From: Noviherbaspirillum saxi
Lineage (GTDB): Bacteria; Pseudomonadota; Gammaproteobacteria; Burkholderiales; Burkholderiaceae_D
Assembly: GCF_003591035.1 (NCBI RefSeq)
Contig: NZ_QYUO01000001.1
Span: 2,728,001 to 2,792,000, forward strand
Length of the DNA: 64,000 nucleotides
Direction of reading: 5' to 3'
Shown: positions 6,391 through 40,859 of the stretch, in pieces
How positions within the stretch are numbered: position 1 is the stretch's first letter
Layout of the letters: each line of letters begins with the position of its first letter
Made by a program: the position numbers and the translations under genes
The notes under the pieces: generated by a model
The model's database searches: none
The model's input: the letters and a program-made list of their open reading frames with translations, nothing else
Told to the model about the DNA's origin: nothing

Positions 6391-6421
6391 GGGGGATGGG
6401 GAGCAAGAGGTCTTGACGAAC

Positions 6422-6463
6422 GCCCTCACCCCCTGCCCCTCTCCCGCTTGCGGGAGAGGGGTT
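6422..6463. repeat. CCCTCACCCC-type hairpin repeat
   Basis: A GCCCTCACCCC leader is followed by perfect 12-bp arms, CCCCTCTCCCGC (6436-6447) and GCGGGAGAGGGG (6450-6461), with a 2-nt loop. Near-identical units occur at 45302-45420 and 45854-46018. It lies just after frmA. It has no T-tract, so I call it a repeat rather than an intrinsic terminator. Confidence 0.8.
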
Positions 6464-6511: not shown

Positions 6512-6790
6512 TATAAAGGCTTTGGCAGTTTCCCCCTCTGCCGACGCCAAAAGGGCGCTGTCTAAAGCGGATAAAGAAGCGCAGTTGTTTGGGCCCGCCG
6601 AGGGGAGCCGAAGGCGAGTTCTGCGCTTCCCGCTTTAGACAGCGCCCTTTTGGGAACCCCGAAGGGGCGCGGCAGTGGGGTCGCCTTTCTTTGCTTACTT
6701 TCTTTGGCGAAGCAAAGAAAGTGAGTGGCCCGCCGGGGCCAGTCCCGGCTAGGTTGACCGAAGAAATGCCCCCCAGAATCACCGAAGAGA
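6512..6790. repeat. Large dispersed hairpin repeat, copy 1
   Basis: This is homologous over its length to 40479-40743. The main hairpin has 22-bp perfect arms (6549-6570 and 6630-6651) plus an inner 9-bp pair GAAGCGCAG/CTGCGCTTC (6576-6584, 6621-6629) around a 36-nt loop. A second hairpin has arms CTTTCTTTGCTT (6685-6696) and AAGCAAAGAAAG (6710-6721). A third short GC stem is GGCCCGCCGGGGCC. The ORFs inside are not conserved in frame between copies. The repeat fills most of the 424 bp between frmA and fghA. Confidence 0.9.
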
Positions 6791-40478: not shown

Positions 40479-40743
40479 CATAGAGGCTGTAGCTGTTCCC
40501 CCTCTGCCGACGCCAAAAGAGCGCTGACTCAAGCGGATAAAGAAGCGCAGTTGTCTGAGCCGCAGGCGAGTTCTGCGCTTCCCGCTTGAGTCAGCGCTCT
40601 TTTGGGAACCCGAAGGGCGGCGGCAGTGGGGTCGCCTTTCTTTGCTTACTTTCTTTGGCGAAGCAAAGAAAGTGAGTGGCCCGCCGGGGCCAGTCCCGGC
40701 TAGCATCCACGAAGAACAAACCGCACTGAATCACCGAAGAGCA
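40479..40743. repeat. Large dispersed hairpin repeat, copy 2
   Basis: Homologous to 6512-6790 in the same orientation. The main hairpin has 22-bp perfect arms at 40515-40536 and 40582-40603 and inner GAAGCGCAG/CTGCGCTTC arms (40542-40550, 40573-40581) around a shorter 22-nt loop. The second hairpin, CTTTCTTTGCTT/AAGCAAAGAAAG (40636-40647, 40661-40672), is identical to copy 1. The three differences in the 22-bp arms are all matched by complementary changes. It lies between hutU and hutH, so operon transcripts would contain the structure. The rest of 40404-40859 holds only the small 40438 hairpin. Confidence 0.9.
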
Positions 40744-40859
40744 AGTCAAAAGAAAAGATATAAGCTGAGCTACACCAACCGACATCGACAATTCAAGCGC
40801 ATCACCCCCACCCTAACCCTCCCCCTACAAGGGCGAGGGAACCGGACAGAGAAGACACC

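What the first reader, a model, noticed from the sequence alone, without database searches (positions are those of the whole stretch)
6512..6790. Covarying long hairpin in a dispersed repeat (copy 1 of 2)
Copies at 6512 and 40479 share about 270 bp. In the 22-bp main stem they differ at three positions per arm, and every difference is matched by the complementary change in the other arm, so both stems stay perfect. The loop, by contrast, differs in length (36 against 22 nt). Three compensated changes in two copies mean the pairing itself is maintained, by function as RNA or DNA structure or by arm-to-arm gene conversion. The repeat also has a second fully conserved hairpin. It sits inside what would be the frmA-fghA transcript.
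Basis: seen in the sequence. Interest (0 to 1): 0.75.

Follow-up and report, generated by a model that had tools for sequence, protein, structure and literature searches.

The report
Dispersed hairpin element, fast-changing paired stem
A roughly 220-nucleotide non-coding repeat scattered between bacterial genes keeps a 24-base-pair hairpin stem whose letters differ almost freely from copy to copy while the two arms stay matched on one particular strand, which points to a structured, probably mobile element of still unknown function.

Summary
The window's genome has 12 copies with both arms of the main hairpin; the 24-bp stem is Watson-Crick in 283 of 288 cells, while in the nine main-type copies the stem core differs at 46% of positions and the loop part at 4%. 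A covariance model hits 55 of 145 family genomes. At orthologous loci the stem core is no more alike (0.39) than between unrelated copies (0.40), yet stays paired. Departures are G.U rather than A.C (187:27; 31 of 36 genomes, none reversed, 5 ties), whichever way the neighbouring genes run. One strand is therefore kept as a folded single strand; symmetric arm-to-arm conversion, a cruciform, or read-through mRNA alone do not explain it. The element is a three-way junction (P1-P3) with a second hairpin (P4) and two overlapping covarying helices (P5). Empty sites show insertion. Its cap motif recurs in hairpins of other bacteria and in two attC-like sites. Best reading: a mobile element acting as folded single-stranded DNA (0.5); an autonomous RNA is the main rival. 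No enzyme was found.

The parts
6532..6749 (+). copy 1, core element P1-P5 (frmA-fghA gap)
6538..6543 (+). copy 1 P1 5' strand CTGCCG (pairs 6670-6675)
   Evidence: folds; P1 covariation
6547..6570 (+). copy 1 P2 5' arm, 24 nt, variable core
6576..6584 (+). copy 1 P2 inner stem 5' strand (pairs 6621-6629)
6585..6620 (+). copy 1 cap, 36 nt, with the GCC-GAA-GGC tip
6630..6653 (+). copy 1 P2 3' arm
6657..6667 (+). copy 1 P3 hairpin CCCC-GAA-GGGG
6670..6675 (+). copy 1 P1 3' strand CGGCAG
6694..6725 (+). copy 1 P4 hairpin
6726..6749 (+). copy 1 P5, overlapping helices S1 and S2
6754..6788 (+). copy 1 partly conserved 3' extension ending CACCGAAGA
   Evidence: seen by eye in genus copies
40500..40700 (+). 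copy 2, core element P1-P5 (hutU-hutH gap)
40504..40509 (+). copy 2 P1 5' strand CTGCCG (pairs 40621-40626)
40513..40536 (+). copy 2 P2 5' arm, 24 nt
40551..40572 (+). copy 2 cap, 22 nt
40582..40605 (+). copy 2 P2 3' arm
40609..40617 (+). copy 2 P3 hairpin CCC-GAA-GGG
40645..40676 (+). copy 2 P4 hairpin
40677..40700 (+). copy 2 P5, overlapping helices S1 and S2

Best explanation
A non-coding, mobile, dispersed element whose one strand (reading CGG-ATAAA-GAAGCG ... TTCCCG) works as a folded single strand, most likely single-stranded DNA exposed by replication or transfer and read by a recombinase or transposase not yet identified. Shown by sequence: it sits at sites that are empty in sisters; it is kept folded on one strand independently of host transcription; its outer stem has constant length (24 bp) and nearly free core sequence; the tip of P2 is nearly always a C(GNA)G triloop. 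Inferred: that the constant stem is a ruler between the junction and the cap; that the molecule is DNA; that stem letters turn over by compensated steps through G.U plus exchange between copies.
For: Strand bias G.U 187: A.C 27 in 157 unique stems of 36 genomes, also in P4, 41:5 over its first 12 pairs, equal in sense and antisense copies, 35:1 and 36:1. Single copies between co-directional genes lie 12 sense and 11 antisense. Presence/absence at frmA-fghA. Up to 68 model hits in one genome. C(GNA)G tip in 203 of 216 parsed rows; such tips are very stable in DNA hairpins (recalled). The 19-nt cap also sits in the tip of two attC-like sites, and attC recombines as folded single-stranded DNA (PMC2727003, abstract and passages). 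Scan for sigma-70-like promoters around copy 1: none.
Against: No enzyme found: Y1/RAYT fails. G.U tolerance is at least as typical of RNA, and P5 could be an RNA pseudoknot. Old copies at shared loci keep their fold, which a dead transposon copy need not. The G.U excess is unclear outside the family (24:23, 48:28, 34:18 in noisy local alignments). Element ends and target duplications were not mapped. P3 tips were GNA in only 52 of 156 by a crude finder.
Confidence: 0.5

Rival explanations
1. An autonomous structured RNA family: each copy is transcribed on its own, and the RNA (three-way junction, P4, P5) carries the function, perhaps with processing of the long stem by RNase III.
For: Strong covariation, G.U on one strand regardless of host transcription, two overlapping covarying helices in P5.
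Against: No sigma-70-like promoter found around copy 1; no Rfam match at gathering score; dozens of copies per genome with presence/absence between sisters; GNA triloop rather than GNRA or UNCG tips.
Confidence: 0.25
2. A 3' end element of neighbouring mRNAs (terminator, stabiliser or processing site), as proposed for other palindromic repeats.
For: 93 of 94 copies with both neighbours called lie downstream of at least one stop codon, 45 of them between convergent genes.
Against: No orientation preference; same one-strand bias in antisense copies; the scan of the frmA-fghA gap gave 2 terminator-like sites against 0.6 expected, neither of them P2 or P4; inverted pairs point tails out at 21 loci and in at 8. 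Avoiding promoters is expected of any insertion.
Confidence: 0.15
3. No function of the fold: arms are kept alike by template switching or arm-to-arm conversion in a palindrome, and copies are fossils.
For: Saturated stem core with matched arms; an exchange product with unmatched arms exists (L246); one copy has its loop inverted between perfect arms (L067).
Against: Conversion treats G.U and A.C alike, but 187:27 is seen; inner stem, cap and tail stay much more alike than the stem core. Strand-biased deamination could mimic part of the bias and was not excluded.
Confidence: 0.1

Closest known systems
REP / BIME / REPIN palindromes with TnpA-REP (RAYT) transposases
   Same: Dispersed intergenic hairpins, often in inverted pairs, thought to move as folded single-stranded DNA read on one strand (PMC8266576, passages).
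   Different: About 220 nt and several helices; no conserved GTAG (GTAGC in 12 of 96 P5 segments); no Y1 transposase nearby.
Integron attC sites
   Same: Structure kept while sequence varies; some attC tips are a GAA triplet (PMC2727003, passages); the same 19-nt cap in two attC-like sites.
   Different: Single dispersed copies or inverted pairs rather than cassette arrays; no bulged extra-helical bases in the 24-bp stem; integrase not looked for.
Pseudomonas fluorescens intergenic repeats (R0, R2, R178 and others)
   Same: Repeats with hairpins, biased to convergent gene ends (PMC2718517, passages).
   Different: Described there as identical inverted repeats around a variable core region; here the stem itself is variable and compensated. 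Sequences were not compared.
NEMIS/Correia and ERIC elements (recalled, not looked up here)
   Same: Mobile non-coding palindromes near gene ends that form long hairpins.
   Different: No effect on mRNA shown here; a multi-helix layout and a hypervariable stem.

Membership tests
REP/RAYT | conserved GTAG tetranucleotide by the hairpin (PMC8266576 passages) | tested here: not met
   GTAGC in 12 of 96 P5 segments, otherwise GTGGC, GCGGC, TGGCC and others; no other place was scanned for GTAG
REP/RAYT | Y1 transposase gene in the genome and near copies | tested here: not met
   G055 (68 hits) and G058 (7 hits) have no Y1 match, three genomes without hits (G023, G128, G146) have it; no R1 hit in 5 own-genome and 30 other Y1 loci fetched with 1.5 kb flanks
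integron attC | extra-helical bases in the stem that choose the strand (PMC2727003) | tested here: not met
   arms align without gaps: 1 gap cell in 157 unique stems and 1 one-base insertion (L243)
integron attC | integrase gene and core sites | not tested
   no integrase search was made
Rfam RNA families | match at gathering score | tested here: not met
   0 matches in the window; in 4 further loci only sub-threshold matches up to E 1, mostly microRNA hairpin models
intrinsic terminator | GC-rich hairpin followed by a T run | tested here: inconclusive
   copy 1 region: 2 sites against 0.6 expected, neither of them P2 or P4
MITE | insertion with empty sites in relatives | tested here: met
   frmA-fghA: element or remnant in 4, tight junction in 9 of 15 genus genomes
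MITE | terminal inverted repeats and target-site duplication | not tested
   the ends of the element were not mapped

The most novel reading that the evidence does not exclude
The cap (TGTYTGAGC-GNA-GCGAGTT on a short GC stem) is a portable recognition module for folded single-stranded DNA that has moved between otherwise unrelated palindromes, including integron attC-like sites and dispersed repeats in several phyla; the repeat described here is an elaborate form of it, a strand-specific recombination substrate whose ruler stem may take nearly any sequence and is continually rewritten by hairpin-templated copying or exchange between copies.
Probability: 0.2. Interest if true: 0.9.

Novelty: new variant of a known kind. 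Interest (0 to 1): 0.72.

Why it matters
It is a natural mutagenesis experiment: many copies in which the stem letters are saturated but pairing, length and strand are kept, so what is recognised must largely be shape. It poses a testable question: which enzyme or ligand reads this fold, and how do both arms of one stem change together at the same locus in sister species.

Tried and rejected
Y1/RAYT association: none. Rfam: none at gathering score except a tRNA in an unrelated stretch. Plasmid collection: 5 records, each covering at most 34% of the query, from query base 161 onward. G.U against A.C outside the family: 24:23, 48:28 and 34:18, from local alignments too noisy to use. Changes within the near-identical G055 pairs: 12 G.U, 3 A.C, 3 other single changes from a Watson-Crick pair, and 43 compensated double changes, many of them shared by several copies; too dependent to decide.

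Literature, 9 of 10 searches used: searches returned no paper; some searches gave listings. From those listings I saw term-found passages only of PMC2718517, PMC8266576, PMC2727003 (its abstract too) and PMC8632094; the other papers are titles and abstract starts. 'Not found described' means by these searches in that library only.

Correction: my notes called the gene before copy 2 ilvD; NCBIfam shows hutU.

Rows dropped: of 45 copy pairs with both flanks matched in the visible part of the cut output, one search used 42 (left out: a tandem duplicate with N, and two pairs with L259) and one search used 41. leave out L067, L068:2786 and L073 (inverted, truncated or broken stems); one search also L071:2296. 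One search lost 2 of 27 G055 stretches in orientation; one duplicate more., the first strand count (133:12 in 95 rows), was superseded, which includes those genomes. In one search I left the mis-oriented L067 row in. The gene caller is my own codon-usage script trained on 33 ORFs of the window. The P5 parse used a pattern that asks for the S2 letters, so S2 conservation is partly selected.

Full report
WHAT IS THERE. The two copies are as described. A search of the window's own genome (6.5 Mb, three contigs, unnamed) with copy 1 gave 38 matches, 13 of them with E of 1e-29 or less; 12 copies have both arms of the main hairpin. Aligned, the 24-bp outer stem of P2 is Watson-Crick in 283 of 288 cells, with 3 G.U and 2 mismatches. 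Among the nine copies of the main type the stem core differs at 46% of positions and the inner stem plus loop at 4%; of 229 stem-pair differences summed over the copy pairs, 205 are Watson-Crick in both copies. Covariation exceeds all 500 shuffles on every measure, and sliding the partner by one column drops pairing from 99.5% to 40-47%. On 118 distinct genus rows 98.5% of cells pair and 864 cells are changed on both sides, against 241 in shuffles (that alignment was fitted to the model).

THE WHOLE ELEMENT. Read across the family: P1 (closing helix; true partners score 5.5 on average against 4.2 with partners shuffled, 156 elements), P2 (24-bp outer stem, short A-rich bulge, 9-10 bp inner stem, cap), P3 (short hairpin), so P1-P3 make a three-way junction; then P4 (long hairpin), then P5, in which two overlapping 5-bp helices are both kept: S1 as GTGGC/GCCAC, GCGGC/GCCGC, GTAGC/GCTAC and others (77 of 96 fully Watson-Crick, 2 with a G.U, 17 with a mismatch), S2 as GCCGG/CCGGC or GTCGG/CCGAC (94 of 96 fully Watson-Crick, with a pattern that partly selects S2). 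They may be a pseudoknot or alternative hairpins. The tip of P2 is a C(GNA)G triloop in 203 of 216 parsed rows of two overlapping alignments; for P3 a crude finder gave GNA in 52 of 156. Energies do not tell RNA from DNA.

DISTRIBUTION. A covariance model of the hairpin (R1) hits 55 of 145 genomes of the family, 12 of 15 of the genus and 26 of 300 of the order, many of these weakly. One genome, matching N. suwonense, has 68 hits; the 20 stretches that I chose there as likely pairs each hold one copy per strand, 457-479 bp apart. In that genome pairs have tails inward, in the window's genus tails outward.

IT MOVES. At frmA-fghA the element is present in G000, G145 and G148, and as a remnant without the 5' arm in G115; nine others have the two genes almost abutting; for G150 and G151 no frmA match was listed. 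Copies avoid promoters: of 104 copies 45 lie between convergent genes, 24 sense and 24 antisense between co-directional genes, 1 between divergent genes, 10 had a neighbour not called. Of 42 single copies 12 lie sense and 11 antisense between co-directional genes.

THE STEM IS REWRITTEN. For 42 pairs of copies at the same locus in two species, 623 of 1008 stem pairs are the same, 304 changed on both sides and still pair, 81 changed otherwise. The stem core is as different between orthologues (0.39 identical, 41 pairs) as between unrelated copies of the same genomes (0.40, 2364 comparisons; chance about 0.25), while inner stem plus cap are 0.82 against 0.79 and the tail 0.81 against 0.76; copies within one genome give 0.36-0.75 for the core and 0.81-0.95 for inner stem plus cap. 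The clearest case is frmA-fghA in G145 and G148: tail 109 of 111, loop part 47 of 49, but 8 of 24 stem pairs changed, 5 of them on both sides with pairing kept. One copy in G148 (L246) joins a 5' arm of one type to the exact 3' arm of another copy of that genome, so exchange between copies with a joint near the cap seems to happen, and breaks the pairing.

ONE STRAND MATTERS. In 157 unique stems from 36 genomes the departures are G.U 187, A.C 27 and other 48; 31 genomes have more G.U than A.C, none the reverse, 5 tie; counted once per genome, pair and letters, 129 against 24. P4 shows 41 against 5 over its first 12 pairs in 56 distinct hairpins. A cruciform or symmetric conversion predicts equality, since a G.U on one strand is an A.C on the other. 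The bias is the same in copies sense to both neighbours (35:1, 23 stems), antisense to both (36:1, 24 stems) and between convergent genes (62:7, 42 stems), so it does not come from read-through of the neighbours. Caveats: copies are related, so cells are not independent events; the rows were found with a model that scores G.U above A.C, though most scores lie far above the cut; strand-biased deamination could add G.U; outside the family the test was unclear.

READING. Mobility, indifference to host transcription, a strand-specific fold, GNA tips and a stem of constant length and free sequence fit a substrate of a DNA-processing enzyme that reads a single-stranded fold, as for REP or attC, better than a 3' UTR element; an independently transcribed RNA remains possible. 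The constant stem looks like a ruler between junction and cap (inference). The obvious enzyme candidate, Y1/RAYT, fails: no Y1 match in the genome with 68 hits, Y1 present in three genus genomes without hits, and no R1 hit beside 35 Y1 loci.

THE CAP ELSEWHERE. TGTYTGAGCGNAGCGAGTT occurs in 20 of 398 genomes sampled from the phylum, with 0 for the reversed control in the rows shown, and in 87 stretches of viral contigs. By eye at least 12 of the 30 phylum loci have a P4-like hairpin downstream. Two loci (L523, L524) have the cap in the tip of attC-like sites, with further such sites nearby (the attC label rests on recalled core-site letters). Against a strict hairpin rule: in the viral set many hits share AT-rich contexts without a matching arm.

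VERDICT. Real, strong and widespread; function unproved. A new variant of the known kind 'dispersed bacterial palindromic elements', with a combination of features that I did not find described in the searches made.

Noticed in passing
window 6420-6462 and 40808-40842: Other short palindromic repeats of the CCCTCACCCC...CTCTCCCG-CGGGAGAG kind lie next to both copies; in inverted pairs a related CCATCCCCACCCTGG...GGGGAGGG repeat fills the space between the two elements.
   Followed up: no
L067:2287-2400 (G115:C8, near a contig end): A copy whose loop and inner stem are inverted between perfect outer arms; real inversion or assembly artefact (this assembly has N joints).
   Followed up: no
L246:1579-1690 (G148): A copy with non-complementary arms, the 3' arm identical to that of L238:6243-6354: a likely exchange product between copies.
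   Followed up: partly
L523:1-3019 and L524:1-3019 (G669, G672): attC-like sites (TAACGC...TTGTTA) in arrays; one site in each carries the 19-nt cap of the repeat at its tip.
   Followed up: partly
L096-L101 and L132-L151 (G055): Near-identical converging element pairs flanked on both sides by hexamer repeats of the GTTGCC / GTTGCAGTT kind.
   Followed up: partly
L088 after 5352 and L089 (G100): P4 of two copies is interrupted by the same foreign sequence (TGTACAGACTCGGGACATGGG...), probably an insertion sequence that targets the repeat.
   Followed up: no
G000:C3:575209-575302 (L014): A divergent relative of the tail part (P4/P5) with a different upstream part; the hairpin model R1 does not match there.
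   Followed up: no
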